From NCBI RefSeq assembly GCF_001402915.1, contig NZ_CP012945.1:3883501-3947500 (forward strand): DNA of 64,000 nucleotides, given 5' to 3'. Each line of letters opens with the position of its first letter. Position 1 is the first letter of the stretch. The DNA is from Devosia sp. A16. GTDB taxonomy: Bacteria > Pseudomonadota > Alphaproteobacteria > Rhizobiales > Devosiaceae. Made by a program: the position numbers and the translations under genes. The notes under the pieces are model-generated. The model was not told where the DNA came from. It searched no databases and saw only the letters and a list, made by a program, of their open reading frames with translations. Shown here piece after piece: positions 1-43,551 of this stretch.

Positions 1-1058
1 CGCGTCGCCGCAAGGACGGGGGCAGGGCGCTCATCGCCGCGGCCAGCGTTCTCTTTGTCGCCGTCGCCGTGCTGCAGGCGCTGAACTCGGCCGGCGTGCT
101 GCCGCTCGGGCTCAAGGACTGGCGGCCGACGCTTTACGCCTTCCTCGTCTGGTCGGTGGCACTGGGCGTCGGCATGGTGCTGGCGCGCGGCGAGGCGGGG
201 CTGAAGGCGCTGTTCATCCTGCCGGCGGCGCTGTTCACCGCGGCGATGGCGATTTTTCCGACCCTGTTCGGCCTCTCCATCGCCTTCACCGACTGGAACC
301 TCGCCTCGTTCACCGGGCAGAAGTTCAACGGCATCGACAACCTGCTGCAGCTGGTGCGCGACCCGTTCTACTGGAACGCCATGCGCAACATGGTGATCTA
401 CGTACTCTTCGTCTTCGTCGAGTATGCCATCGCCTTCGGCCTCGCACTGCTGCTCAACGCCGAGATCCGCGCCCGCAAATTCTGGCGCGTCGTCTTCCTC
501 ATCCCGCTGATGCTGTCGCCCGTCGCCGTCAGCTGGATGGTCGGCAAGTCGATGCTCGAATACCGCTTTGGCCCGGTGGCCCGCTTCGCCCGCTGGCTCG
601 GCGTCAATAACCCGAGCTTCTTCACCGACCCGTGGGTGGCGCGCCTGTGGATCGAGGCGATGGATGCCTGGGTGTCGATCCCGTTCGTGATGATCCTCCT
701 GCTGGCGGGCCTCCAGGCCATGCCCAAGGAGGTCATCGAGGCCGCCAAGGTCGACGGCGCTTCGCCCTGGCAGCGCTTCTGGCAGGTGATCTTCCCGCTG
801 ATGCTGCCGGTCTCGATCACTGCGATCGTGTTGCGCATCATCTTCAAGCTCAAGCTCGCCGACATCATCATCACCGTCACCTCGGGCGGCCCCGGCGGCG
901 CCACCGACAGCGTCTCGAGCTTCATCTACCGCGAGTATCGCGACCGCTCGAATGTCGGCTACGGCACCATGCTGGCGATGTTCTACCTGGTGGTGATCGT
1001 GATCTTCGTGACCCTGCTGCTGAAGTTCCTGCGCAAGCACATGCAGAGGATGACCTGA
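1..1058 (+). CDS. Sugar ABC transporter permease, MalF-like (5' end cut by window)
   Basis: Integral membrane subunit of a carbohydrate ABC importer. The reading frame is open from base 3 with no stop, so the true start lies outside the window; the internal GTG at 69 is not a convincing start. The visible part has several hydrophobic segments and the cytoplasmic EAA loop (EAAKVDGAS, bases about 739-765) that contacts the ATPase. At least two membrane segments precede the usual FILPA segment, giving a long MalF-type N-terminus. Its stop overlaps the next permease gene by one base (TGATG), so the two are co-translated. The binding protein and ATPase are probably to the left. The substrate is unknown. 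Confidence 0.9.
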   Translation, partial: RRRKDGGRALIAAASVLFVAVAVLQALNSAGVLPLGLKDWRPTLYAFLVWSVALGVGMVLARGEAGLKALFILPAALFTAAMAIFPTLFGLSIAFTDWNLASFTGQKFNGIDNLLQLVRDPFYWNAMRNMVIYVLFVFVEYAIAFGLALLLNAEIRARKFWRVVFLIPLMLSPVAVSWMVGKSMLEYRFGPVARFARWLGVNNPSFFTDPWVARLWIEAMDAWVSIPFVMILLLAGLQAMPKEVIEAAKVDGASPWQRFWQVIFPLMLPVSITAIVLRIIFKLKLADIIITVTSGGPGGATDSVSSFIYREYRDRSNVGYGTMLAMFYLVVIVIFVTLLLKFLRKHMQRMT

Positions 1059-1993
1059 TGGCTGCCGAAGCTACCCTCTCTGTTCCGGCCTCGGCCGATA
1101 CCGGCGCAGCCACCCGGCGGTTGAAGCATGTCGCCGGCAAGGTCGGCATCTATGCCGCCCTAGTCATCTGGGCCTTCGTCTCGCTGTTCCCGGTCTACTG
1201 GACCATCACCACCTCGATGAAGGTGGCCAAGGATGTGCAGCTCGGCCACCTGATCCCGTGGGTCGATTTCCAGCCCAACTGGCTCGGCTGGCGCTCGTTG
1301 GGGCTCTCACCCGACACCATCGGGCAGGTGTCGACGGTGCGCGACGAGTTCCTCGATCGCTTCCTCAATTCGATCTACACCGCCTTTGGCGCCTCGTTCC
1401 TCGCGGTGCTGATCGGCGCGCTCGCAGCCTATGGCCTCAGCCGCTTCCAGTACAAGTTCCTCTGGATGAGGAACCAGGACCTGAGCTTCTTCTTCCTGAG
1501 CCAGCTGATCCTGCCGCCGGTGGTGCTGGCGCTGCCGTTCCTCGTGCTCTACCGCGAGCTGGCATTGCTCGACAGCATCATCGGCCTTGTCCTCCTCTAC
1601 ACCCTCACCGTGCTGCCGATCGTCATCTGGATCATGAAGGACCAGTTCGACACCATCCCGATCGAGCTCGACGAGGCGGCGCAGGTCGATGGTCTGGGGC
1701 CCTGGGGCTCTTTCTTCCGCATCATCCTGCCGATGGCGCTGCCGGGGATGGTGGCGGCCTTCATCCTCAGCCTGATCCTCTGCTGGAACGAGTATTTCTT
1801 CGCCGCGCTGCTCACCGGCTCGGAGGCCAAGACCCTGCCGGTGATGGTCGCCAGCCAGACCGGCTCGCAAGGCATCAACTGGTGGAGCATGGCCGCGCTC
1901 TCCACCGCCGCCATCGCGCCGCTGGTGGTCGTCGGCGTGCTGCTCGAGCGCTACATCATTCGCGGCCTGACGGCGGGGTCGGTGAAGGGGTAG
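1058..1993 (+). CDS. Sugar ABC transporter permease, MalG-like
   Basis: Second membrane subunit of the importer, 311 residues, the normal size for this family. The ATG at 1058 overlaps the stop of the preceding permease. A long soluble loop follows the first membrane segment (about residues 20-45), and the EAA loop (DEAAQVDGLGPW) is near residue 210. An open frame extends upstream to 632, but that part is a shadow of the first permease. This is the last gene of its operon in the window; the palindromic repeat at 2026 follows within 35 bases. Confidence 0.92.
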   Translation: MAAEATLSVPASADTGAATRRLKHVAGKVGIYAALVIWAFVSLFPVYWTITTSMKVAKDVQLGHLIPWVDFQPNWLGWRSLGLSPDTIGQVSTVRDEFLDRFLNSIYTAFGASFLAVLIGALAAYGLSRFQYKFLWMRNQDLSFFFLSQLILPPVVLALPFLVLYRELALLDSIIGLVLLYTLTVLPIVIWIMKDQFDTIPIELDEAAQVDGLGPWGSFFRIILPMALPGMVAAFILSLILCWNEYFFAALLTGSEAKTLPVMVASQTGSQGINWWSMAALSTAAIAPLVVVGVLLERYIIRGLTAGSVKG

Positions 1994-2273: not shown

Positions 2274-2582
2274 ATGCTGACGACCAGGCGCAAGCCCGCG
2301 AGCGTAGGCGAAATCCTCGTCGAGGAGTTCATGCGGCCCCTGGGGCTCACCCAGGCCGCCCTCGCCGAGGCCATGGGCGTACAGCGCAACCACGTCAATG
2401 AACTGTGCAATAACCGCCGAACGGTGACTGCGCCTACGGCTCTTATCCTCGCGCGTGTCTTCGGAAACAGCGCCGACTTCTGGCTGAATGTGCAGCGCCG
2501 TACCGACTTGTGGCAGGCGATGCACGATCCTGAAGAGGTGAAGCGAATTACGCGGGCAAAGCCGCTCGCGGACGCCGCCTAG
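2274..2582 (+). CDS. higA: HigA-family antitoxin, XRE-type DNA-binding protein
   Basis: A 102-residue protein of typical HigA length. The helix-turn-helix lies at about residues 24-45 (LTQAALAEAMGVQRNHVNEL), followed by the family's conserved FWLNVQ segment near residue 70. In an intact module it would bind the toxin and repress the operon. The toxin gene upstream appears broken, so this is probably an orphan antitoxin and transcriptional regulator. The gene ends three bases before the convergent FGGY kinase gene ends, leaving no room for a terminator. Confidence 0.88.
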   Translation: MLTTRRKPASVGEILVEEFMRPLGLTQAALAEAMGVQRNHVNELCNNRRTVTAPTALILARVFGNSADFWLNVQRRTDLWQAMHDPEEVKRITRAKPLADAA

Positions 2583-2585
2583 AGC

Positions 2586-4076
2586 TCACAGCTCCCGCAT
2601 CAGATCCTTGTTCCGCTCGTAAAGCTCCCGGAACACTCGATAGCGCCGCGCGTAAAGCTCGCGCAGGTTCTCGTCCGGGGTGATCTCGTGGTCCACCGGG
2701 TTCCAGGTGCGGATGTCGTCCGGTTGCACGTCGCCGATCGCCAGGGCCGCGATGAACGCATCGCCGTACGAGGCCCCCACCGTCTTCTGCCGCACGATCT
2801 GCGTGCGGCCCGAAACGTCCGAGGTCGCTTGCGCCCACACCCTGTTCTTGGTGCCGCCGCCGGCCGCGAGGATCGCCCTCGGTGGCTGGCCGACATCTGC
2901 ATAGGTCTCGAACACGTGGTACGTGCCGAAGGCGATGCCTTCGAACAGCGCCCGATAGATGTCGCCGCGGCTATGCGTCAGGTTCATGCCGAACAGCACG
3001 CCCTTGGCCTCGGTGTCGTGGATCGGCGTCCGCTCGCCCGAGAAATAGGGCAGCATCACCAGCCCGTTGGCGCCGGGCGGCGAGCCCTCGGCCTCGAGCG
3101 CCAGCGCCATCACCGCGGTCGCCGGGTCGAGCTCTTTGCCGAACTGCTCGCGGAACCAGTGGCTGAGCGTCCCCGAGGTCGCGAGCCCCGACATCGCCGC
3201 GTGCTTGCCGGGGAAGAACCACGGCGCATACCAGAGCCTTGCATCAGGCACCCGCACCGGGGTGATCTCGATGATGAAGATGGTCGAGCCGTACATCAGC
3301 AGCATGTCGCCATCGTCGAGCACCCCGACGCTCAGCGCCTCGGCGCCGGCATCGATCGTGCCTGTGGTCACCGGCGTGCCCACTGCGAGCCCGGTCTCGG
3401 CGGCGGCTGCCGCCGTCACCGTGCCGGCGATATCGGTGGTCCAGATCGCCTCGGGGAGCTTGTCGAGCCCGATGATGTCGTCGGCCAGCTCGTCGGTCCA
3501 TTCGAGCTTTTCGACATCGTAGAGCGGCGAGAAATTGGCGGCCGAATAGTGGTCGATCACATAGCGGCCGGTGAGCTTGTGGACGATGTATGTGGTCGAG
3601 GTCAGGATCTTGGCGGTCCTGGCGTAGAGCTCCGGCCGGTTCCGCTTCAGCCACAGGATCTTCGGTCCGATCGACTGCGACGTCAGCGCGTTGCCGCAGC
3701 GGCTCAGCAGCACGTCCTCGCCGATCCGCGCCGTCAGGTCCTCGATCTCCTTTGCCGCCCGCGTGTCGACGCCATAGAGCACGCCGTTCATCAGCGGCTC
3801 GCCCTCGGCATCGACCGGCAGCATGCAGGGGCCGATGGCGCTCGCCGCCACGGCCTTGATATCGTTGGGGTCGACGCCGCTGTCGGCGATCAGCTTGCGG
3901 CTCAGAAAGCAGAAATCGCCCCACCAGTCCTCGCGGGGCCGGTGCTCGGCCCAGCCGGGCTGCGGCACCAGCATCTTGTGCGGCCGGGCGGCACTGGCGA
4001 CGATCCGCCCCTCCGCATCCACCAGCACGCCCTTCGATTCAAACGTCCCGATATCGATGCCGAGATAGTGCCTCAT
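2586..4076 (-). CDS. FGGY-family carbohydrate kinase
   Basis: A 496-residue sugar kinase with the two ribonuclease-H-like domains of the FGGY family. The N-terminal phosphate loop GIDIGT is at residues 6-11, and the likely catalytic aspartate is D242 in TIDAGAEAL. A glycine-rich adenosine-binding segment (AAGGGTKNRVW) is near residue 405. It resembles xylulokinase-like members, but the substrate cannot be read from sequence. The start codon overlaps the stop of the M42 gene by four bases (ATGA). It is the last gene of the btpA-like - M42 - kinase operon and probably phosphorylates a sugar, or a product, handled by those two enzymes. Confidence 0.9.
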   Translation of the reverse strand: MRHYLGIDIGTFESKGVLVDAEGRIVASAARPHKMLVPQPGWAEHRPREDWWGDFCFLSRKLIADSGVDPNDIKAVAASAIGPCMLPVDAEGEPLMNGVLYGVDTRAAKEIEDLTARIGEDVLLSRCGNALTSQSIGPKILWLKRNRPELYARTAKILTSTTYIVHKLTGRYVIDHYSAANFSPLYDVEKLEWTDELADDIIGLDKLPEAIWTTDIAGTVTAAAAAETGLAVGTPVTTGTIDAGAEALSVGVLDDGDMLLMYGSTIFIIEITPVRVPDARLWYAPWFFPGKHAAMSGLATSGTLSHWFREQFGKELDPATAVMALALEAEGSPPGANGLVMLPYFSGERTPIHDTEAKGVLFGMNLTHSRGDIYRALFEGIAFGTYHVFETYADVGQPPRAILAAGGGTKNRVWAQATSDVSGRTQIVRQKTVGASYGDAFIAALAIGDVQPDDIRTWNPVDHEITPDENLRELYARRYRVFRELYERNKDLMREL

Positions 4077-5170
4077 CCGATGTAATCGTCCCGGTCGAGG
4101 CTGAACTTGTTGTCGATCCGCGGCAGCGCCTCCACCAAGAGCGCCGTCAGCTGCTCGAGATCGGCCAGGTCGCAGACCTCCCGCGACGAGTGCGAATAGC
4201 GCATCGGAAAGCCCACATCGATCGAGGCGACGCCCTGGCCGACCAGTTGCACATAGCTGAGGTCGGTCAGCGCCCCGATATGGGCGCTCCGCTGCAGCGG
4301 CAGCTTTCTCGCCGCTGCGCTCTCTTCGAACAGCCGTACCATCGCCGGATGCGGCAGCGTGCCGTTGAGCGTGCCGCGCCCATGGAACGAGTAGAGTGAG
4401 ATCGCCGGCCCGCCGCCGAGCTTCACGTCGCCGCGCGCCGCCATGTCGGGCGTGTCGGTCGCAAGGATCAGGTCGAGCTGGATCGCCACATCGGGCATCA
4501 GCACCTGCGCCGCGGTCACGGCGCCACGGAGGTTGAATTCCTCCTGCACCGAGAACACGAAATGCACCGTCGGCCGCTTCTTGACCTCGACCAGCGCCTT
4601 CGCCACCTCGATCATCACCGCGCAGGCGGCGCGATCATCGACTGCCGTGCCGGCAATCCGCCCGTTGGCGAGCTCGGTCACCTTGGGCGCGTAGACGATC
4701 GGCGTTCCCACATCGATCCCCGCCGCCAGCACTTCGGCCGCCGACTTGAACCCGGCATCGACATAGAGCTCGGGGTAGGGCAGGACCTTGTATTTCTCGT
4801 CCTGCGATGTCGCGTGGTGGCTCTTGTGCGCGATCAGCCCAGGCACATCCTTGCCCTCGCCGATGCAGAACAGCACCTCCGTGGAGGGCAAGGCCCGCTC
4901 CGGCACGCCGCCCAGCCGCTCGACCCGAACCATGCCGTTGGCTTCGATCTTCCGCACGATCAGCCCGAGCTGATCCATATGCGCGAACAGCATGACGCTC
5001 GGCGCGCCCTTGTCGCCCGGAAGCGTCGCGATCAGGTTGCCCAGCCGGTCGGTGCTCGAGGTGATCCCCAGCCCCGCCATTGCCGCCTTCAGATACTTGC
5101 GGACCCGCCCCTCATAGCCGGCGAGCCCGGGGATGAGCATCAGGTCGATCACCCATTGCTTCAAACTCAT
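4073..5170 (-). CDS. M42-family metallopeptidase homologue (SgcX/FrvX-like)
   Basis: A 365-residue member of the M42 aminopeptidase/so-called endoglucanase family. All five expected metal-site positions are visible: H64 and D66 (HMDQLG), D178/D179 (DDRAA), E210/E211 (QEEFN), D239 (ATDTPD) and H327 (YSHSSR). It should therefore be an active dinuclear metal hydrolase that forms large tetrahedral complexes. Family members placed in sugar operons, such as E. coli SgcX and FrvX, have no proven substrate. It starts one base into the stop of the BtpA-like gene and overlaps the kinase by four bases, implying translational coupling. It may remove an N-acyl or peptide-like group from a sugar derivative (inference). 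Confidence 0.88.
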   Translation of the reverse strand: MSLKQWVIDLMLIPGLAGYEGRVRKYLKAAMAGLGITSSTDRLGNLIATLPGDKGAPSVMLFAHMDQLGLIVRKIEANGMVRVERLGGVPERALPSTEVLFCIGEGKDVPGLIAHKSHHATSQDEKYKVLPYPELYVDAGFKSAAEVLAAGIDVGTPIVYAPKVTELANGRIAGTAVDDRAACAVMIEVAKALVEVKKRPTVHFVFSVQEEFNLRGAVTAAQVLMPDVAIQLDLILATDTPDMAARGDVKLGGGPAISLYSFHGRGTLNGTLPHPAMVRLFEESAAARKLPLQRSAHIGALTDLSYVQLVGQGVASIDVGFPMRYSHSSREVCDLADLEQLTALLVEALPRIDNKFSLDRDDYIG

Positions 5171-5982
5171 CAGTACCCCCGCGCGGCGCGGACCAGCCGC
5201 ATGAATTCGGCAGCCCGATCGGCGTCGACCGCCTTCCAGGTGTCACCGTCGACCTTCAGCGACGAGCCGACGATGCAACCGTCGGCCACCTTGAGCACAT
5301 CCGCCACCGTCGCGTGCTTGACCCCGGTATTGGCCAGCACCGGGGTGGTCGGCAGCGCCTTCTTGACCGCCTCGAGGTCGACCATTTTCGCCGCTTCGCC
5401 GGTGATGGCGCCCGAAACGAGGATCGCATCGGGGATCGACGAGAACACCGCGCTGCGCGCCCGGTCGGCCAATGGTCGCTGGTCGAGCGAATAGGCGAAT
5501 TCGGCCGAGACGTTGTAGAGCAGCGCCAGGTCCTGCCGACCGAGCCGATCGCGATAGCGCATCGCCTTGCCGGCATCCGGCGTCCAGGGCCCCATATCCG
5601 AGGCGTAGGTGCCGGTGAAGATTTCGCGCACGAAGCGCGCGCCGGTCGCGGCGGCGAGCGCGATCGAGCTCTGCGGATCCCACAGCACGTTCACCCCGAA
5701 CGGCACGGTGATCTCTGAGCGGAGCCGCCCGATCACGTAACCCATCGTCGCCGTCGAGGCGGTATCGACCTGGAATTCGTACGGCCGGTCGTTCTCGTTG
5801 CCAAACATCACGGCATCGAACCCCGCGGCCTGCAGCGCCATCAGGTCCTTGCGGGCCCCCTCGATGATGGCCTCCACCCCTCCCTCATAGTCGTGCAGCG
5901 GCGAGCCCGGCAGGGCCCCCAGGTGCACCATGGCGATCACCGGCTTCTTGTCGCCGAACACCGTCTTGAATTTGCTTGTCAT
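5170..5982 (-). CDS. BtpA/SgcQ-family TIM-barrel protein
   Basis: A 270-residue protein of the BtpA family, recognisable by the N-terminal VIAMVHLGALPGSP segment, the GFDAVMFGNEND segment near residue 58, and the C-terminal VLANTGVK...GCIVGSSLK phosphate-site-like end. BtpA was named for a photosystem I role in cyanobacteria, while SgcQ lies in an E. coli sugar operon; the chemistry is unknown. It is the first gene of the operon. No Shine-Dalgarno sequence is visible before the ATG; an A-rich stretch and a LacI-type palindrome lie 10-23 bases upstream instead. Confidence 0.88.
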   Translation of the reverse strand: MTSKFKTVFGDKKPVIAMVHLGALPGSPLHDYEGGVEAIIEGARKDLMALQAAGFDAVMFGNENDRPYEFQVDTASTATMGYVIGRLRSEITVPFGVNVLWDPQSSIALAAATGARFVREIFTGTYASDMGPWTPDAGKAMRYRDRLGRQDLALLYNVSAEFAYSLDQRPLADRARSAVFSSIPDAILVSGAITGEAAKMVDLEAVKKALPTTPVLANTGVKHATVADVLKVADGCIVGSSLKVDGDTWKAVDADRAAEFMRLVRAARGY

Positions 5983-6005: not shown

Positions 6006-6130
6006 TAGACGCCTATGCGTAGCAGCGGCGGAGCCCGGCGTCTATGGCTCCAACGAGCTGTGGCGCGCCCCACACCAATCCTTAACCACGATCGACTAGA
6101 GTGCGGAGTAATGAGTGCGAGGTTCCCAAG

Positions 6131-6388
6131 ATGGAACTGCTCTTTCTCCTCCTGCTGATCCCGGTGGCCTGGCTGCTGTTGCTGCCCAAACGGCTCGCGA
6201 GGCGCGCCCGCAAGTACCGCTTCACCGGCGCCGGCATTCTTCTGGGCGTGATGGTCGCGGGCTGGGTCGGCGTGCAGGCCCTGTCGAAGCCGCCTGCCGA
6301 GACTGTCGACTATGCCGCCGGCGACAGCGAACTGCGCGCCATCCTGCTGCGGCCCGACACCGCTCCGCGGTACAGCTTCCGGGACTAG
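6131..6388 (+). CDS. Small predicted membrane protein, unknown function
   Basis: An 85-residue protein with two hydrophobic stretches: residues 2-17 (LLFLLLLIPVAWLLLL) and about 33-50, separated by a basic arginine/lysine-rich loop that should face the cytoplasm. The ATG at 6131 is chosen because the membrane segment starts there; an upstream GTG at 6101 in frame would add ten polar residues. No family is recognised. It stands alone between two minus-strand operons and a palindromic repeat begins 17 bases after its stop. Confidence 0.6.
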   Translation: MELLFLLLLIPVAWLLLLPKRLARRARKYRFTGAGILLGVMVAGWVGVQALSKPPAETVDYAAGDSELRAILLRPDTAPRYSFRD

Positions 6389-6404: not shown

Positions 6405-6591
6405 CCACCGTCCCCTCTCCCCTCAGGGGAGAGGGCAAGCGTAGCTTGCGAGCGTCAGCGAGTTAGCGAAGCTAGGGTGAGGGGTTCAGCCTCTTAGCAT
6501 GCTGGTTTGTCCAGCTAGTGGCGCCGCTTCACCCCTCAACCGGCGCTACGCGCCACCTTCTCCCCTGAGGGGAGAAGGGAGTGGCTGCGCT
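6405..6591. repeat. Paired palindromic repeat, runs into nagA
   Basis: Two C/G-rich hairpins face each other. The left arm (6408-6486) contains CTCCCCTCAGGGGAGAG and an AGCGTAGCTTGCGAG stretch; the right arm (6530-6591) contains TCTCCCCTGAGGGGAGA. The right arm overlaps the 3' end of nagA, so the enzyme's last residues are encoded by the repeat. The element also lies where transcripts from both sides converge and may act as a bidirectional terminator. Confidence 0.6.
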
Positions 6592-7694
6592 CTCAGTCCT
6601 TCACCGAACCAGACGAAATCCCCTGCGTCCCCCGGTCGCAACCGCCCCAACCCCGCTGCCCCGATCGCCTCTGCCGGATAGAGCGATGCCATCTTCAGGC
6701 AGTCGCCGAGCTCCATGCCGAACACCTGGTGCATGTAGCGCACCGCCGCGTCGAGCGTCAGGTCGGCGCCTGCCAGGGTGCCGTCACCGAGGCGCAGCGC
6801 GCCGTCCTTGCGGTAGATCGTCCGCCCGTTGAGCATGAAGCTCGACATGTCGGTTCCGGCCTGCGACATCGAATCCGAGACGAGGAAGATCCGTCCCGGC
6901 CCGTTCTTGGCTCGGAGCGCCAGCCTCAGGGTCGCGGGGTTGACGTGGATACCGTCGGCGATCAGCCCTGCCCACACGCGGCCATGGTGCAGTGCCGCGC
7001 CGACCACGCCCGGGTCGCGATTGCCGATCTGGCTCATCGCGTTGAACAGGTGCGTCGCCATGCCGGCACCGGCCCTGATCGCCGCCGAGGTGATCTCGAA
7101 CGACGCATCCGAATGCCCGATGCTGACCACGACGCCGGCGCGCACCAGCCGGGCGATCTGCTCGGGCGCCACCGTCTCGGCCGCCACCGTCACCAGCAGG
7201 TGGGGCAGGGCGGCACGCGCGCGCTCCAGGCGCTGCAGGTCCGCCTCGTCCATCGGCCGGATCAGCGCCGGATCGTGCGCGCCCTTGCGCGCCAACGACA
7301 GATGCGGCCCCTCGAGGTGCAGCCCGAGAAAGCCCGGCACCCGGCGTCGTGCTGCCTCGGCACCGGCCGCCAGCACCGCATCGGTAACTTCGGCCGTGTC
7401 GGTGATCAGCGTCGGCAGCAGCCCGGTGACCCCGAACGCGCGGTGGGTGGCGCAGACCAGGGCAAGGTCGTCCGCCGTCGTCGCCGGCCCGACCAGGTGC
7501 CCGGCGCCGCCATTCACCTGCAGGTCGATCAGCCCGGGTGCCAGCACCCCGCTGTCGAGGGCGACGTGCGTGGCGTCAGCCGGTGCAACCCCGATGGAAT
7601 GCACGACGCCGTCGACGACGACCAGCGCAGCATCATCGTGCCAGGCCTCGCCATCGAAAATGCGGGCGCCGGAATAGGCAATGATATGGGACAT
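6546..7694 (-). CDS. nagA: N-acetylglucosamine-6-phosphate deacetylase
   Basis: A 382-residue amidohydrolase that removes acetate from GlcNAc-6-phosphate. Diagnostic motifs are the metal-ligand segment HLEGPH near residue 131, GHSDAS near 200, THLFNAMS near 220, and the catalytic aspartate segment VSDSM near 280 (TDAM in many homologues). The ATG at 7694 is chosen because the MSHIIAYSG start fits the family; the frame runs on upstream through the repeat. The last dozen residues come from a palindromic repeat rather than a normal NagA terminus. It is the last gene of the amino-sugar operon. Confidence 0.92.
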   Translation of the reverse strand: MSHIIAYSGARIFDGEAWHDDAALVVVDGVVHSIGVAPADATHVALDSGVLAPGLIDLQVNGGAGHLVGPATTADDLALVCATHRAFGVTGLLPTLITDTAEVTDAVLAAGAEAARRRVPGFLGLHLEGPHLSLARKGAHDPALIRPMDEADLQRLERARAALPHLLVTVAAETVAPEQIARLVRAGVVVSIGHSDASFEITSAAIRAGAGMATHLFNAMSQIGNRDPGVVGAALHHGRVWAGLIADGIHVNPATLRLALRAKNGPGRIFLVSDSMSQAGTDMSSFMLNGRTIYRKDGALRLGDGTLAGADLTLDAAVRYMHQVFGMELGDCLKMASLYPAEAIGAAGLGRLRPGDAGDFVWFGEGLRAQPLPSPLRGEGGA

Positions 7695-7716
7695 GGGGGG
7701 CTCGATGTCTCGGTGA

Positions 7717-7841
7717 TCCTCCCCCGCGTGGCGGGGGAGGGGGACCGCCGAAGGCGGTGGAGGGGGCGTAGGAGTCGCCGTGAGTCTGGCTTCCCCCTCC
7801 ACCAGCTTCGCTGGTCCCCCTCCCCGCTACGCGGGGGAGGA
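7717..7841. repeat. Large inverted palindromic repeat between SIS gene and nagA
   Basis: Left arm about 7717-7768 and right arm about 7789-7841 are near reverse complements (TCCTCCCCCGCGTGGCGGGGGA on one side, its counterpart GCTACGCGGGGGAGGA on the other), each arm also forming its own hairpin. The element sits inside the operon between the SIS-domain gene and nagA, where it could reduce or insulate expression of nagA. Confidence 0.65.
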
Positions 7842-7911
7842 CACGGCGAGGCCGGTGGCCCATGAAACGTGTCCCGGGCGTCAGGGTCAGCTTCCGCCCG
7901 GGACTTCGCCG

Positions 7912-8706
7912 TCAGCCTTCCTTGGCCATCGACTTCTTGAACTGCGGCAGGTGCTTCTGCTGCGCTTCCAGCATGCGCTCGCGGTACTGGCCGTAGATGA
8001 TGTCGGTGTCGTGCAGCGTCACACCCGGGATGGTCGGCGATGCGAACACCGGCAGCTCGATGCCGCGGTCGGCGAGCTTCTGGGCGCTCTCGGCGAGCAG
8101 CTCATGCATCATCATCATGGCGAGCACGGTCGACGAACCGGCCACCGGACGCGACCAGCCCTTGATGTCGACAATCGCGTCTTCCACCGGCGAGCCGGTG
8201 TCGATCACGATATCGGCGGCGTGCGGCAGGCGCTTGCCCGACGAGTGCGTCGCCGGCTTGCCGGCGTTGGATTTCGCCGTGATGGCGATCACCGTCAGCC
8301 CACGGGCCTTGGCATAGAGCGCGGTGTCGATGCCCGAGGCGTTTGAGCCCGAGTGGCCGAAGATCACGATGGTGTCGCCGGCGTTGAGCGGCTGGTGGTC
8401 GAGGAACTTGTCGGCATAGTTCTCGGTGCGCTCGAGCCACAGCAGCTCACGCACGCCGCCGGCGCCCAGAATGTTGTGCCACATGACGCGTGGGTCGGTC
8501 AGCGGGTTGAAGCCGACATACGAGCCGTAGCGCGGGTAGGTTTCCTGCACCGGCAGCACCGAGTGGCCCGAACCGTAGAGATGCACCAGGCCCTTGTTGG
8601 CGAGGGTTTCGGCAATGGCGGACGAAGCCTTGTCGAAGGCGTCGGCATTCGCGGCGGCCGCCGCCTCGGCGATCTTCACGAGCTTGCTGATATACAGGGT
8701 GGACAT
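7912..8706 (-). CDS. Single SIS-domain sugar-phosphate protein (UPF0309-like)
   Basis: A 264-residue protein with one sugar isomerase (SIS) domain. The N-terminal substrate-loop segment VHLYGSGHS is at about residues 40-48, and the second phosphate-loop segment IFGHSGSNASG is near 115-125. Length and motifs fit the UPF0309 group rather than the two-domain GlmS or NagB-II type. Its position between the GntR regulator and nagA suggests it acts on the same amino-sugar phosphate, perhaps supplying the deaminase/isomerase or an etherase step, since no NagB is present here. That role is inference; only the fold is supported by the sequence. Confidence 0.82.
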   Translation of the reverse strand: MSTLYISKLVKIAEAAAAANADAFDKASSAIAETLANKGLVHLYGSGHSVLPVQETYPRYGSYVGFNPLTDPRVMWHNILGAGGVRELLWLERTENYADKFLDHQPLNAGDTIVIFGHSGSNASGIDTALYAKARGLTVIAITAKSNAGKPATHSSGKRLPHAADIVIDTGSPVEDAIVDIKGWSRPVAGSSTVLAMMMMHELLAESAQKLADRGIELPVFASPTIPGVTLHDTDIIYGQYRERMLEAQQKHLPQFKKSMAKEG

Positions 8707-8730
8707 AGGTTTGCCTTTCAGAACAAAGCG

Positions 8731-9482
8731 TTACACGTAGAGTGTGGAGCGGATCTCGTAGCGGTCCGCGCGCATGGTGGAGAGGGCGTATTCGAACGGC
8801 CCCTCGAGTCGTAGGCGATGCGTTCGACCTCGAAGGCCGGCGTGCCCGCCGTAAGCTGGATCAGTTCGGCATCGGCGGCCGCGACGCTGCCGACGCGGTA
8901 GACTTCCTTGGCCTTCACCGGAGTGATGCCGCAGCGCTCCTTCAGCCAGCCATAGAGTGACTGGACGTTCGCCGCGTCCTCCAGCAGCCCGGGCACCCGC
9001 GCCTCGGGCAGGTGGCTGGTCTGGATGCCGATCGGCATGCCGTTCCCGAGCCTGAGGCGCTTGAGCTGCACGACGGGGTCGCCGATGGCGATCTCCAGCG
9101 CATCGGCCATCTCTTCGTCCGCGACGACCCGGTGCGCTTCGATCAACCGGGTTCCGGCCTGCAGCGACAGCGTCTTCATTTCGTCGGTGAAGCTGGTGAG
9201 GCCGCGCACACCGGCGACCACAGTCGCCGAGCGCACGAACGTGCCGCGCCCATGTTCGCGCCGCAACAGCCCCGCCTCTTCGAGGTTGCGGAGCGCATGG
9301 CGCAGCGTGATGCGCGAAATGCCGAGCATCTCGCCAAGCCGATCCTCGTTGGGGATCTGCATGCCCGAGCTCCATTCGCCGCGCTCGATCAACTCGCGCA
9401 GCGCCATCTCGGCCTGATGCCACAGCGGCTCCGGCCGCCGCCGATCGGGCTTTATGAGACCGTTTGGTTCATCCATGCCCAT
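8731..9482 (-). CDS. GntR-family regulator with UTRA domain, frameshifted near the C-terminus
   Basis: The N-terminal winged helix (residues about 15-80, with LGISRITLRHALRNLEEAGLL) and the UTRA effector domain are intact up to IAYDSRG. There the frame breaks at a run of four C on the plus strand (8800-8803). The other frame continues as the expected family ending (PFEYALSTMRADRYEI, stop at 8731). Without correction the protein reads out of frame and stops at 8718. One missing base in a G-run explains it. The start overlaps the kinase stop. It probably senses an amino-sugar phosphate and represses this operon. Confidence 0.82.
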
Positions 9483-10347
9483 TCCTCCAGTTCGGCCCAT
9501 AGGCGCCGGCGAAAGCCGCACCCACCAGTCCCGCCTTGGGCCCGAACTGCCCGGGGCGGATATCGATTGCTCGCAAGTGTGGCGGCAGCTGTCGCTGCAG
9601 CGCCGGCAAAATGAGCGGCTTCAGCACATCGAGCGACGCAGCGACGCCGCCGGCAAGAATGATCGCCTGCGGCGCCAGCAGCGCCACCGCTCCCGCCAAG
9701 GCGCTGCCGAGGGCCTGCATCGACGGGGCCAGCGCATCGATCGCGGCGGCATCCTGAGCCCTTGCCGCCCGCACCAGGCTTGCGCCATCCGGCAGGCCAA
9801 TGCCTTGCGCGGCGGCATCGAGCGCTCGTCCGGATGCCTGCCGCTCCAACCAGCCGCTGACATCTTCGCCCGGGTCGTCGACATCCGCCACCGCCCAGCC
9901 GAACGAGCATGCCGCGCCGCCGGCGCCGGTCACGATCCGCCCGCCGGCCAGCACCGACGAGCCGATCCCGGTGCCGATGGCGAGGAGGATCGCATCCTCG
10001 AGGCCCACCGCCGCGCCGGCCGACGCTTCGGCCAGCAACGCCAGTTGCGCGTCGTTGCCGAGCCCGATCGAGACCTCGGGCAGCGCCGCGGCCAGGTCGA
10101 GCCCGTCGAGGTAGGGGAGGTTCGGCACCCAGCGGCACACTGTGCCTTGCGCCAGCCCGGGTATGCCGAGCCCAAGCCGGGTTGCGCCATGCTCGGCCAG
10201 TTGCCGGCGCAGCAGGGCGAGAAAATCATCGCGGCTCTGCGGCGCCGCCCATTCCCCCACCGCGGCCACCGCTTCTGGTTTGTCCGCTTCGGCGAGGCCG
10301 GCGCGGAAGCGGGTGCCGCCGAGATCGATGGCGAGGATCGCACTCAT
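9469..10347 (-). CDS. ROK-family sugar kinase lacking the usual zinc motif
   Basis: A 292-residue actin-fold kinase. The phosphate-1 loop IDLGGTRFRAG is at about residues 6-16, with GLGIPG, NLPYLDG and the catalytic-aspartate segment GLGNDAQLAL, then AIGTGIGSS; together these are typical of ROK glucokinase/NagK-type enzymes. The canonical cysteine cluster CxCGxxGCxE after GAGGAAC is replaced by a sequence without that pattern. In context it probably phosphorylates an imported amino sugar, making the substrate for NagA. It overlaps the upstream permease by four bases and the downstream regulator by about 14. Confidence 0.85.
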   Translation of the reverse strand: MSAILAIDLGGTRFRAGLAEADKPEAVAAVGEWAAPQSRDDFLALLRRQLAEHGATRLGLGIPGLAQGTVCRWVPNLPYLDGLDLAAALPEVSIGLGNDAQLALLAEASAGAAVGLEDAILLAIGTGIGSSVLAGGRIVTGAGGAACSFGWAVADVDDPGEDVSGWLERQASGRALDAAAQGIGLPDGASLVRAARAQDAAAIDALAPSMQALGSALAGAVALLAPQAIILAGGVAASLDVLKPLILPALQRQLPPHLRAIDIRPGQFGPKAGLVGAAFAGAYGPNWRNGHG

Positions 10348-11219
10348 CCCTTCACCCCCGAACTCACCACCGAGTCAACGAAGAAGCGCTGCAGGATCAC
10401 GAACAGCAGCACCGGCGGCAGCACCGCCAGCGTGGCGCCGGCCATCACCAGGCCGGTGTTCATGGCGCCGCGGTTGTAGCTGAGGAGCCGTGAGAGCGAG
10501 ATGACGATGGGGTACTGGTCGGCGCTGCCCTGCAGCACGGTCAGCGGCCAGAGGTAGCTGTTCCAGTGATAGACGAAGGCGAACAGCACCAACGCCGCGA
10601 TGGCCGGCATCACCGCCGGAGCGACGATCTGGAACAGCACGCGCAACTCCGATGCACCATCGACCCGCGCCGCTTCGATCAGTTCGTCCGGCACGCCCTT
10701 GATGAACTGGCGCATCAGAAAGATGCCGAAAGCATTGGCGAGGTTGGGAACGATCACCCCGGCGAGGCTGGCGTTCAGCCCCAGATAGCCGGTGATCCGG
10801 TAGAGCGGGATCAGGGTGACGATCGGCGGCAGGAACATCGTTGCGATCAGCAGGGCAAACAGCGCTTCCTTGTAGCGGAACTCGTACTTGGCGAAGGCGT
10901 AGCCGGCCATCAGGCTGGTGACGATGATGGCGATGGTCGTCACCAGGGCGATCACCGCCGAGTTGAGGAACGAGCGCCCGAGGCTCACCACCTCGGCCAC
11001 CTGCGTATAGGCGTCAAGGTTCGGCGCACCCGGCAGCCAGACCGGGGGCACCTGCATGGTCTCCTGCGGCGTCTTGAGGCTGGTGAGGATCATCCAGGCC
11101 AGCGGAAACGCGGCGATGACTGCCACCACGATGATGGCGAGGGCCAGCAAGGCGCTCGCCGGCGTGGCCTTGAAGCGCGGACCCTCGAGCGGGCGGCGGT
11201 CTGCTGCTGCGGTGCTCAT
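10344..11219 (-). CDS. Sugar ABC transporter permease, MalG-like
   Basis: A 291-residue inner-membrane subunit with six predicted membrane segments. The EAA loop is near residue 190 (LIEAARVDGASELR). The ATG at 11219 overlaps the stop of the MalF-like gene (ATGA), and its own stop overlaps the kinase start in the same way. A longer open frame reaches upstream to 12233 but only shadows the other permease. It pairs with the binding protein at 12273-13568. No ATPase gene is in this operon, so a shared ATPase encoded elsewhere is likely. Confidence 0.92.
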   Translation of the reverse strand: MSTAAADRRPLEGPRFKATPASALLALAIIVVAVIAAFPLAWMILTSLKTPQETMQVPPVWLPGAPNLDAYTQVAEVVSLGRSFLNSAVIALVTTIAIIVTSLMAGYAFAKYEFRYKEALFALLIATMFLPPIVTLIPLYRITGYLGLNASLAGVIVPNLANAFGIFLMRQFIKGVPDELIEAARVDGASELRVLFQIVAPAVMPAIAALVLFAFVYHWNSYLWPLTVLQGSADQYPIVISLSRLLSYNRGAMNTGLVMAGATLAVLPPVLLFVILQRFFVDSVVSSGVKG

Positions 11220-12112
11220 GCGGACTTCGCCTCCCGCGAACGGGCAAAGGCGAACAGCAGCGCGATCGCCACGATCAGCGCCAGCATCAGCGTCACCGCC
11301 ATGGCGGAGCCCAGTCCGCCCTGCGCGCGTTCGATGCCGACGCGACGGATATGATAGGTGAGCACATTGGTGGCATTCACCGGGCCGCCCTGGGTGATCA
11401 GCGCCACCGGCTCGAACACCTGCACGGCGTTGATGATGGCGATCACCGAAGAGAACAGCAGCGTGTTGCCGAGCAGCGGCAGGGTGATCGAGAAGAAGCG
11501 CTGGATCGGGTTGGCGCCGTCGATCCTGGCCGCTTCGTAGAGCGAATCCGGAATCTGCGTCAGCCCTGCGACCACCAGCACGGTGAAATAGCCCACCTGT
11601 TGCCAGACGTTGAGCAGGATGATCGAGAACAGCGCCGTCTGCGGCGCGCTCAGCCAGGTCTGCGGCGGGATGCCGACCCAGCCGAGGATCTGGTTCAGCG
11701 GCCCCTCGGTGGGCGAATAGAGTTTTGAGAATACCAGCGCCACCGCAATCATCGGCACCATGTAGGTGGAGAACAGCACGGTGCGCAGGAACACCCCGCC
11801 CGGCGCGATCTTCTGGTGCACCAGCAGACCCAGCAGCACCGACAACGGCAGGATGATCGCCACTGAGCCCACGGTATAGAGCGCCGTGTTGACCAGCGCC
11901 GCCTTGAAGTCGCGACCCACCGAATTGTTGGCGAAGATATCGATGAAGTTCTGCACGCCGACAAACGTCGCGGTCTCGAACCCGGTCTGCGTCGACCAGT
12001 TCTGAAAGCTCAGCCAGATGGTCAGCAGCATCGGAATGATGATGAAGACCGCCAGCAGCCCGGTCGCGGGCGCCAGCATCACGATCGCCGATCGGTGTTG
12101 GGTTGAAGTCAT
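11216..12112 (-). CDS. Sugar ABC transporter permease, MalF-like
   Basis: A 298-residue inner-membrane subunit. The first membrane segment covers about residues 10-32, the periplasmic loop carries FVGVQNFIDIF, and the EAA loop (YEAARIDGANPIQRF) is near residue 205. It forms the translocation pore with the 10344-11219 permease. A palindromic repeat of about 108 bp separates it from the binding-protein gene upstream, the usual place for a feature that lets binding protein be made in excess. Confidence 0.92.
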   Translation of the reverse strand: MTSTQHRSAIVMLAPATGLLAVFIIIPMLLTIWLSFQNWSTQTGFETATFVGVQNFIDIFANNSVGRDFKAALVNTALYTVGSVAIILPLSVLLGLLVHQKIAPGGVFLRTVLFSTYMVPMIAVALVFSKLYSPTEGPLNQILGWVGIPPQTWLSAPQTALFSIILLNVWQQVGYFTVLVVAGLTQIPDSLYEAARIDGANPIQRFFSITLPLLGNTLLFSSVIAIINAVQVFEPVALITQGGPVNATNVLTYHIRRVGIERAQGGLGSAMAVTLMLALIVAIALLFAFARSREAKSA

Positions 12113-12128
12113 GGACTATCCCATCCAC

Positions 12129-12236
12129 CGGTGTCACCCCGGCGAAAGCCGGGGCCCAACCTGAGATCTCTCCATATCCGTTACCGGTCGTGAAGTCTCG
12201 GAGATGGATCCCGGCCTCACGCTGGGATGACACCGT
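12129..12236. repeat. VTPAKAGAQ-type palindromic repeat in ABC operon
   Basis: Imperfect inverted repeat with outer arms CGGTGTCACCCCGGCGAAAG and CTGGGATGACACCG, and inner arms GAGATCTCTCC and GGAGATGGATC. It is the common proteobacterial element whose translation gives VTPAKAGAQ. A related copy is at 20181. It lies between the binding-protein gene and the permeases and can form an mRNA hairpin there. Confidence 0.65.
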
Positions 12237-12272
12237 GGGTTGTTGGTCAGTCGGGGCATGGCCCCGACATTC

Positions 12273-13568
12273 TTACTTCGCGTTGCGCTCGAGGATTTCG
12301 GCCGCGTCGGCTTGCGCCGTTGCCTGCGCATCGGCGGCCGAGAGCTGGCCGAACTGGATGGCCTCCAGCGTCTTCTGCAGAGATTCCGAGAACTCCTGGC
12401 CGCCCAGCACCACCGGGAACGGCTTCGCGTTCGCGAGCGTCTCGGTATAGCCCTTGAGGAAGCTGTCGGCAGCGAGCTTGTCGGCAAACGCCGCGCCATC
12501 CGAGGTGCGCGACGGCAGGATGCCCATCGACATCAGGATATCACCCATGGCGGAGGCGCCGTTCGGACCCGATTCCGGCCCGTTGAGCCAGTTGAGGAAG
12601 TCCCAGGCGGCGGCCTGTTCCTCGGCCGAGGCCTTGGCGTTGACCACGGTCATCCACGAATAGGAGATCGAGCGGGCAGTGTCGCCGGACGGTCCGACCG
12701 GGATCGGAGCCGTGGCGATATCGGCGAAATTGTCGCCCATGCCGGCCTTGAGCGCCGATTCCCACCAGTTCGCCATGATGATCATGCCGGTCTTGCCCGA
12801 GACGAAACTGTCAAGGAACGGCCCGGTGGTGTTGGCGTCGGCAGTGGCCATCGCCGGGTCGGAATAGCCCGACTTGATCAGCTTCTCGTAGAGCTCGAAG
12901 GTCTGCTTGGCGGCTTCGCTATCGAGCGTCGGCTTGCCGTCGACCACCAGGTCGCCGCCATTCGAGACCAGCAGCGACGAGAACGGGTGCAGCACGCCCG
13001 CTGCCCACGAGTTGATCAGCCCAAAGCCCTGCTGGCCCTTGGCCTTGTCGGTCAGCTTCTCGGCCGCGGCGAGGAATTCGTCCCAGGTCTTAGGCGCCTC
13101 GGTGATGCCCGCTTCCGCGAACAGCTTCTTGTTGTAGTTGAGCGCGTAGACGTCGATCTCGTTGGGAATGCCGTAGAGCACCCCACTGATCGAGGCCGCG
13201 CCGATCACGCCGGCCGGCCAGTTGGCCTTGGTGTCGGCCGCGATCGCATCGGGGACCGCTGCCACCAGCTGGTCCTTGGCGAGGTCCGGCAGCCATGCAT
13301 CGTAGATGCCGGCAATCGTCGCGCCGCCAGCGCCGCCGCCCGACGTGCGCAGCGTCGTCAACAGGTCGCCGAACGGAACGGCGCGAACGGTGATCTTGGT
13401 GTCCGGGTGGGCCTGGGTATAGGTCGCGGCGGCCGCCTCCAGCTTGGCCACCGTGTCCGGTGCCCAGTGGGTGAGGAACGACACATCCGCGGCCTGGACC
13501 AGCGCGGTGCTCGAAAGCAGGACCGCGACCGCCCCCGCGGAGCGCGTGAAAGCCTGGAACAGCTGCAT
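12273..13568 (-). CDS. Extracellular sugar-binding protein of ABC transporter
   Basis: A 431-residue family 1 solute-binding protein. A signal peptide is at residues 1-26 (charged start, hydrophobic core, ending LVQAA). The mature part has the type signature FLTHW...GDLLTTLRTSG and the conserved FVSGKTGMIIMANWW and WAAGVLHPF stretches. It captures a sugar, probably an amino sugar given nagA, kinase and SIS genes downstream, and delivers it to the two permeases. Shine-Dalgarno GGGAGAAA precedes the ATG. It is the first gene of the operon, read from the promoter at about 13625-13652. Confidence 0.92.
   Translation of the reverse strand: MQLFQAFTRSAGAVAVLLSSTALVQAADVSFLTHWAPDTVAKLEAAAATYTQAHPDTKITVRAVPFGDLLTTLRTSGGGAGGATIAGIYDAWLPDLAKDQLVAAVPDAIAADTKANWPAGVIGAASISGVLYGIPNEIDVYALNYNKKLFAEAGITEAPKTWDEFLAAAEKLTDKAKGQQGFGLINSWAAGVLHPFSSLLVSNGGDLVVDGKPTLDSEAAKQTFELYEKLIKSGYSDPAMATADANTTGPFLDSFVSGKTGMIIMANWWESALKAGMGDNFADIATAPIPVGPSGDTARSISYSWMTVVNAKASAEEQAAAWDFLNWLNGPESGPNGASAMGDILMSMGILPSRTSDGAAFADKLAADSFLKGYTETLANAKPFPVVLGGQEFSESLQKTLEAIQFGQLSAADAQATAQADAAEILERNAK

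Positions 13569-42459: not shown

Positions 42460-43551
<1,092 letters not shown>

What the first reader, a model, noticed from the sequence alone, without database searches (positions are those of the whole stretch)
2586..5982. BtpA-like + M42 peptidase-like + FGGY kinase operon: an sgc-like pathway of unknown chemistry
The three genes overlap tightly. E. coli sgc has a BtpA-type (SgcQ) and an M42-type (SgcX) protein together with PTS genes; here a kinase takes the place of PTS phosphorylation, with ABC permeases close by. All five M42 metal positions are kept. The substrate is unknown in both systems, so the pairing hints at a shared pathway acting on a sugar derivative, phosphorylated by the kinase. 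This is the best candidate for an undescribed system in the window.
Basis: partly seen in the sequence, partly recalled or inferred. Interest (0 to 1): 0.78.

Follow-up and report, generated by a model that had tools for sequence, protein, structure and literature searches.

The report
Conserved sgc-like sugar-phosphate gene module
Three overlapping bacterial genes (a barrel-shaped enzyme, a metal-dependent hydrolase and a sugar kinase) belong to a conserved nutrient-use module that shares its core with an E. coli operon of unknown purpose, which gives a new way to find out what both of them break down.

Summary
In detail: BtpA, M42 and FGGY genes overlap in one operon. It is not peculiar to this genome. 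In the 80 closest named M42 relatives (of 404 found), BtpA lies just upstream on the same strand in 76 and FGGY is present in 70; two permeases like those at window 69-1993, and their large binding protein, recur in 62-65. The M42 groups with E. coli SgcX, apart from YpdE and FrvX. In the order sample, SgcX-type M42s neighbour BtpA in 12 of 17 genomes, ordinary M42s in 0 of 32 (only 3 of those 32 have a BtpA over the cut-off). The five exceptions all carry BtpA elsewhere. Sgc PTS and SgcE relatives are absent from 99 class-1 stretches, FGGY from 4 sgc loci, so kinase and PTS look like alternatives. BtpA models as a TIM barrel close to phosphate-binding ones. Best reading: a breakdown module for a sugar conjugate; M42 cuts an amide-like bond, FGGY phosphorylates a ketose, BtpA acts on the phosphate. 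Substrate and reaction order are inferred, not shown. New variant of a known kind (sgc).

The parts
5170..5982 (-). BtpA/SgcQ-family protein, first gene of the operon; TIM barrel by model
   Evidence: Pfam PF03437 257 bits, NCBIfam TIGR00259 256 bits; AlphaFold model pLDDT 89 and fold matches
4073..5170 (-). M42-family metallohydrolase of the SgcX group; metal and catalytic positions kept; group motifs EEFNLRG (residues 210-216) and HGRGTLNG (263-270)
2586..4076 (-). FGGY carbohydrate kinase; its group is separate from class-2 kinases and not among seven E. coli FGGY kinases; aligned catalytic Asp D242 kept (role recalled)
   Evidence: PF00370/PF02782; best NCBIfam xylulokinase 300 bits, under its 380 cut-off; tree
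1..1058 (+). MalF-type ABC permease of the linked transporter (gene begins about 111 bases left of the window)
   Evidence: PF00528; longer frame L112:9889-11058; recurs in 63 of 80 M42 loci
1058..1993 (+). MalG-type ABC permease of the linked transporter (start placed by me at an ATG overlapping the previous stop)
   Evidence: open frame 632-1993; recurs in 65 of 80 M42 loci

Best explanation
A conserved catabolic module that shares its core (SgcX-type M42 plus SgcQ-type BtpA) with the E. coli sgc operon. A CUT1-type ABC transporter with a large, possibly Tat-exported binding protein brings in a carbohydrate conjugate (inferred from transporter type). The SgcX-type M42 hydrolase, with an intact two-metal site but a changed pocket, cuts an amide or amide-like bond in it (inferred). 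The FGGY kinase phosphorylates the keto-sugar part, doing what the PTS does in sgc (inferred from mutual replacement). BtpA, a TIM barrel closest in fold to phosphate-binding ones, then epimerises, isomerises or cleaves the phosphosugar (inferred from fold and from its company with phosphorylating partners). Accessory genes that come and go (FucU-type mutarotase, aldo-keto reductase, fuconolactonase-like lactonase, AP_endonuc_2 isomerase, PfkB kinase, PHI-type SIS isomerase) feed the products into central metabolism (inferred). Shown: the genes, their linkage, the grouping with SgcX and SgcQ, and the folds (by model). The module as a conserved unit I hold at about 0.95; the full reaction scheme at the confidence given here.
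For: Linkage in the 80 closest named M42 relatives (M42 present by construction): BtpA 76, same strand in 76 of 76, gap between match ends 100 bases or less in 74 of 76; FGGY 70; permeases 65 and 63, binding protein 62, ATPase 42, FucU 41, AKR 33, AP_endonuc_2 23, PHI 20, PfkB 17, lactonase 15, creatininase-like 11. In the BtpA-seeded sample, M42 and FGGY accompany 11 of 12 class-1 BtpAs, the twelfth being cut by a contig end. Specificity: 12 of 17 SgcX-type versus 0 of 32 ordinary M42s beside BtpA in 297 genomes of the order. Dependence: the clusters without local BtpA (5 in the order sample; L155 and L166 among the 80) all lie in genomes with BtpA elsewhere. Shared ancestry with sgc: M42 group support 98/95 and common motifs; BtpA of classes 1, 2 and SgcQ together against class 3 and Halobellus, 100/100; sgc genes in Salmonella and in G526. 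Phosphorylating partner in the same stretch: FGGY with 11 of 12 class-1 and 36 of 42 class-2 BtpAs, PfkB with 16 of 26 class-3, PTS in sgc, FGGY on a Thermus plasmid, a carbohydrate kinase in Halobellus. Sgc genes are induced 16-25-fold on nitrogen-containing carbon sources in E. coli (PMC13343008, section 8 in full and passages).
Confidence: 0.42

Rival explanations
1. A pathway for an ordinary pentulose or polyol: FGGY makes a known ketose phosphate, BtpA is a sugar-phosphate epimerase or isomerase, and M42 is a peripheral peptidase that happens to travel along.
For: Class-2 relatives have SDR (35 of 42), FGGY (36), DeoR (32) and HAD (24) with BtpA and no M42, which looks like polyol oxidation then phosphorylation; likewise on Thermus and Shinella plasmids. 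The best curated kinase match is xylulokinase.
Against: M42 is kept in 8 loci that lack FGGY and belongs to a group of its own with SgcX. The kinase stays under the cut-off of each of the 12 NCBIfam families it matched and groups with none of XylB, LyxK, RhaB, FucK, GlpK or LsrK; AraB falls beside it only weakly, on a long branch that the program flags.
Confidence: 0.22
2. A pathway for an L-fucose, L-galactose or D-arabinose type sugar and its conjugates, with mutarotase, aldose dehydrogenase and lactonase as the main route and the three genes handling a side group.
For: FucU-like mutarotase in 41 of 80 and left of the window in the own genome; L-galactose-dehydrogenase-like AKR in 33; fuconolactonase-like enzyme in 15.
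Against: FucU (85 bits, cut-off 141) and lactonase (222, cut-off 400) are below their curated cut-offs, the AKR is a distant relative. In the own genome, the window and 10 kb to its left hold no lactonase match and only a 25% AKR match far away at 42562-43404.
Confidence: 0.2
3. BtpA is not an enzyme here but a stabilising or regulatory partner of another protein, as reported for cyanobacterial BtpA with glutamyl-tRNA reductase.
For: A review's passage on Skotnicova et al. 2024 (PMC11449065, passages read; the original was not read).
Against: 24 positions, among them H20, R119, R142, R169 and K243, are invariant across 12 BtpAs of classes 1-3 and SgcQ, and the usual neighbours are sugar-catabolic genes.
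Confidence: 0.08

Closest known systems
E. coli/Salmonella sgc operon (sgcXBCQAER)
   Same: SgcX-group M42 and SgcQ-branch BtpA; sugar-type transport; unknown substrate
   Different: PTS genes and the SgcE epimerase are in all 4 sgc loci and in none of 99 class-1 stretches; FGGY is in 87 of 99 and none of the 4; ABC transporter here
Class-2 BtpA loci (DeoR, SDR, BtpA, FGGY, HAD; Rhizobiales-order genomes, Thermus plasmid)
   Same: BtpA 52-60% identical in the order sample (67% in Thermus), FGGY in 36 of 42
   Different: No M42 in 42 stretches; SDR and HAD instead; the FGGY beside BtpA 31-36% identical and in another group
Class-3 BtpA loci (ribose-type ABC, PTE, glutamine-amidotransferase-like, ribokinase-like, M20 carbamoylase)
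   Same: BtpA with a sugar kinase in 16 of 26 and an amide-cutting metallohydrolase in 11 of 26
   Different: BtpA 27-35% identical; PfkB instead of FGGY; M20 instead of M42
frv and ypd operons of E. coli
   Same: M42 gene next to PTS genes
   Different: No BtpA in the 7-10 kb stretches annotated; FrvX and YpdE fall outside the SgcX group and lack its motifs

Membership tests
sgc-type system | M42 protein of the SgcX group | tested here: met
   98/95 with SgcX of E. coli, Salmonella and G526; shared motifs
sgc-type system | BtpA protein of the SgcQ branch | tested here: met
   46% identical to SgcQ; one branch with SgcQ and class 2, 100/100, against class 3 and Halobellus
sgc-type system | PTS IIA/IIB/IIC genes in the cluster | tested here: not met
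   SgcA, SgcB, SgcC: 0 of 99 class-1 stretches (window included), 4 of 4 sgc loci, tblastn E 1e-5
sgc-type system | SgcE-type epimerase in the cluster | tested here: not met
   0 of 99 versus 4 of 4
sgc-type system | DeoR-type regulator SgcR in the cluster | tested here: not met
   matches in 5 of 99 (L039, L131, L133, L134, L141), none in the window or L112
Peptidase family M42 | Family profile, fold, and two-metal plus catalytic residues | tested here: met
Peptidase family M42 | Aminopeptidase activity | not testable with these tools
   needs purified enzyme
FGGY kinases | Both FGGY domains and the catalytic aspartate | tested here: met
Xylulokinase (TIGR01312) | Score over the curated cut-off | tested here: not met
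   300 bits, cut-off 380
BtpA/SgcQ family (TIGR00259) | Score over the curated cut-off | tested here: met
   256 bits, cut-off 153
Photosystem I BtpA (NF045918) | Score over the curated cut-off | tested here: not met
   168 bits, cut-off 400
3-hexulose-6-phosphate synthase-like barrels | Closer by fold than other phosphate-binding barrels | tested here: inconclusive

The most novel reading that the evidence does not exclude
The SgcX group is not a peptidase lineage but hydrolyses the amide bond of a phosphorylated sugar conjugate (its conserved HGRGTL[NA]G stretch holding the phosphate), and BtpA is the lyase or epimerase that follows. Then sgc, this module, and class 3 with its carbamoylase would be variants of one general route for N-substituted sugar phosphates, and BtpA a phosphosugar enzyme family whose cyanobacterial role is derived.
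Probability: 0.22. Interest if true: 0.85.

Novelty: new variant of a known kind. Interest (0 to 1): 0.56.

Why it matters
Three E. coli operons pair an M42 protein with putative PTS genes; as far as I recall none has a known substrate. Finding the sgc pair in a second, PTS-free setting with its own ABC binding protein and a kinase gives separate handles (ligand screening, kinase assays, mutants) on a question that E. coli mutants have not answered. It also suggests that the BtpA family, known mainly from cyanobacterial photosystem and chlorophyll work, acts on sugar phosphates.

Tried and rejected
Considered and set aside: (1) the amino-sugar genes at 6546-13568 (NagA, SIS, GntR, ROK, ABC) as part of the system: the NagA cluster holds 5 of the 81 stretches clustered (80 loci plus the own genome), namely four Devosia loci and the own genome. 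(2) PHI-type isomerase as an essential step: 20 of 80 loci have it, but the own genome has no match at E 1e-15, while 60 of 297 genomes do, most of them not beside BtpA. (3) A universal amidase beside BtpA: M42 in 11 of 12 class-1 stretches, a dimethylformamidase-like pair in 7 of 42 and a gamma-glutamyltransferase in 1 of 42 class-2, M20 in 11 of 26 class-3 (8 directly beside BtpA); too patchy. (4) Spread of class 1 to other phyla: L136 is titled Chloroflexi, L154 Mycobacterium, L186 Solirubrobacterales. The phylum sample around the genome of L186 (G297) returned, apart from that genome itself, matches with the same coordinates and scores as three of those around the window's genome, so I do not claim Actinomycetota or Chloroflexota; the tree output labels L186 Actinomycetota from its title. 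(5) The HGRGTL stretch as wholly unique: in the alignment to M. jannaschii MJ0555 (an ordinary M42) an SGRGL piece stands there, and Deinococcus has GAGG. (6) Literature: no paper on the trio seen (open-licence PubMed Central only; part listings in 40 and 105).

Limits and errors of mine: the 80 named loci are the best 80 of 404, so counts lean to close relatives. The 80 BtpA stretches are a part of the matches, some genomes giving several. The simple gene caller missed or misplaced genes (for example BtpA in the Inquilinus loci, M42 in L195), so counts rest on tblastn. In one search one BtpA row (L085) was translated in a wrong frame, with X at stops; the tree was rebuilt without it and without a duplicate genome. 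The 99 stretches hold some genomes twice (at least L031/L143, L034/L172, L046/L192, L077/L167, L112/window). The P values (7e-8 and 5e-4) ignore relatedness; three of the five trans cases share a genus.
Full report
WHAT IS THERE. The minus strand carries BtpA (5170-5982), M42 (4073-5170) and FGGY kinase (2586-4076) in that order of transcription, with overlaps of one and four bases. All three are far over their Pfam cut-offs. The own genome (5.03 Mb, one contig) has a single BtpA match, this one. The operon converges with two ABC permease genes (ending at 1058 and 1993, plus strand); a 543-residue binding protein, with a Tat-signal match just under its cut-off, and a FucU-like mutarotase lie left of the window (L112:8240-9871 and 7476-7943). 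The nearest named relatives of the M42 are Devosia proteins, 96% identical.

HOW WIDESPREAD. In 297 genomes of the order, 89 have a BtpA match, 77 over the cut-off. I fetched 80 BtpA neighbourhoods, a part of those matches, and sorted them by BtpA identity to the window: class 1 (12 stretches, BtpA 75-83%, with M42 63-71% and FGGY 62-74% in 11; the twelfth is cut by a contig end), class 2 (42; BtpA 52-60%, FGGY in 36, no M42) and class 3 (26; BtpA 27-35%, no M42, no FGGY). A scan of genome contigs with an M42 alignment found 404 relatives and kept the best 80, among them Devosia, Mesorhizobium, Rhizobium, Inquilinus, Dongia, Tateyamaria and Ruegeria. In these 80, tblastn finds BtpA in 76, on the same strand each time and within 100 bases in 74; FGGY in 70; the two permeases in 65 and 63; the binding protein in 62; ATPase 42; FucU 41; AKR 33; AP_endonuc_2 isomerase 23; PHI 20; PfkB 17; fuconolactonase-like 15; creatininase-like 11. 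Many loci end at contig ends, so the accessory counts are lower bounds. Of the four without BtpA, two are cut by contig ends (L120, L173) and two are real absences (L155, L166; for L166). Across the phylum the SgcX-type M42 is rare: 4 of 299 genomes at E 1e-75, the own genome included.

SPECIFICITY. At E 1e-30 the M42 search of the order falls into two sets: 17 genomes at 528-666 bits and 32 at 171-201 bits. Of the 17, 12 have BtpA on the same contig, 11-32 bases away (match ends) in ten, 474 and 1043 bases in two; of the 32, none has it near. That control is thin, as only 3 of the 32 genomes have a BtpA over the cut-off and 9 a weak match. The five exceptions (G068, G135, G183, G208, G010) keep M42 and the transporter, four of them FGGY as well, and each has a BtpA over the cut-off on another contig; the two losses among the named loci also have BtpA elsewhere. 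This fits BtpA being needed and supplied from another locus, though three of the five share a genus.

LINK TO SGC. In a tree of 16 M42 proteins the class-1 proteins and SgcX (E. coli, Salmonella, and G526, whose locus holds relatives of all seven sgc genes in order) form one group, 98/95, apart from YpdE, FrvX, Enterococcus, Sulfitobacter and an ordinary member from the order; Deinococcus sits next outside on a long branch. The group shares EEFN[LI]RG where the six others have EEVGLRG or EEVGLKG, and a stretch HGRGTL[NA]G that five others lack; Deinococcus has GAGG there and MJ0555 an SGRGL. The BtpA tree puts class 1, class 2, the Thermus, Shinella and Rhizobium plasmid proteins and SgcQ together against class 3 and Halobellus, 100/100. 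SgcA, SgcB, SgcC and SgcE relatives are absent from 99 class-1 stretches and present in 4 of 4 sgc loci; SgcR-type regulators match in 5 of 99; FGGY is in 87 of 99 and 0 of 4. So two different transport-and-phosphorylation devices accompany the same M42-BtpA core. Against a strict bond, BtpAs 73% (Shinella) and 67% (Thermus) identical to this one stand without M42 in class-2-like surroundings.

PUBLISHED CONTEXT. A 2026 E. coli study (PMC13343008; section 8 read in full, other passages) reports 16-25-fold induction of the sgc genes on nitrogen-containing carbon sources, no growth defect of delta-sgc on 190 carbon sources, and an unknown substrate. PMC5797941 (passages) describes sgc as a PTS for an unknown sugar, SlyA-repressed. 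A review (PMC11449065, passages) says cyanobacterial BtpA interacts with and stabilises glutamyl-tRNA reductase. A D-ribulose pathway with FGGY and a KpsF-like isomerase does not mention BtpA or SgcQ in its main text (PMC12307932, passages).

VERDICT. The trio is real and conserved, and its core is related to sgc. The amide reading rests on the M42 fold, on the creatininase-like gene in 11 of 80 loci, on the M20 carbamoylase in 11 of 26 class-3 stretches and on the nitrogen response of sgc; it is weakened by the 34 of 42 class-2 stretches with no amidase found.

Noticed in passing
window 2274-2582 (+): HigA-type antitoxin gene (TIGR02607, 108 bits, cut-off 48) wedged between the permease and kinase genes; the listed frames just before it were not searched for a toxin partner.
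   Followed up: partly
window 6546-13568 (-): Amino-sugar operon: NagA, SIS protein, GntR/UTRA regulator, ROK kinase, two permeases, binding protein; NagA seen near the trio in four Devosia loci and the own genome.
   Followed up: partly
window 6101-6388 (+): Small open frame of 95 residues between BtpA and NagA, conserved in four Devosia loci and the own genome; no family search made.
   Followed up: no
L043, L044 and other class-3 loci; L233:3298-11045: BtpA in an operon with ribose-type ABC genes, phosphotriesterase-like, glutamine-amidotransferase-like, ribokinase-like and M20 carbamoylase genes: looks like breakdown of an N-riboside or ureide.
   Followed up: partly
L040, L058, L068, L075, L079, L084, L089: Class-2 BtpA loci with a two-gene N,N-dimethylformamidase-like unit (large subunit PF20254).
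   Followed up: partly
L231:8268-16784: Thermus thermophilus plasmid with DeoR, BtpA (67% identical to the window), FGGY, SDR, ABC transporter and a sugar-phosphate isomerase in a row.
   Followed up: partly
L136, L154, L186: Record titles (Chloroflexi, Mycobacterium, Solirubrobacterales) sit oddly with M42 genes 66-73% identical to the alphaproteobacterial one; possibly misnamed or misbinned.
   Followed up: partly
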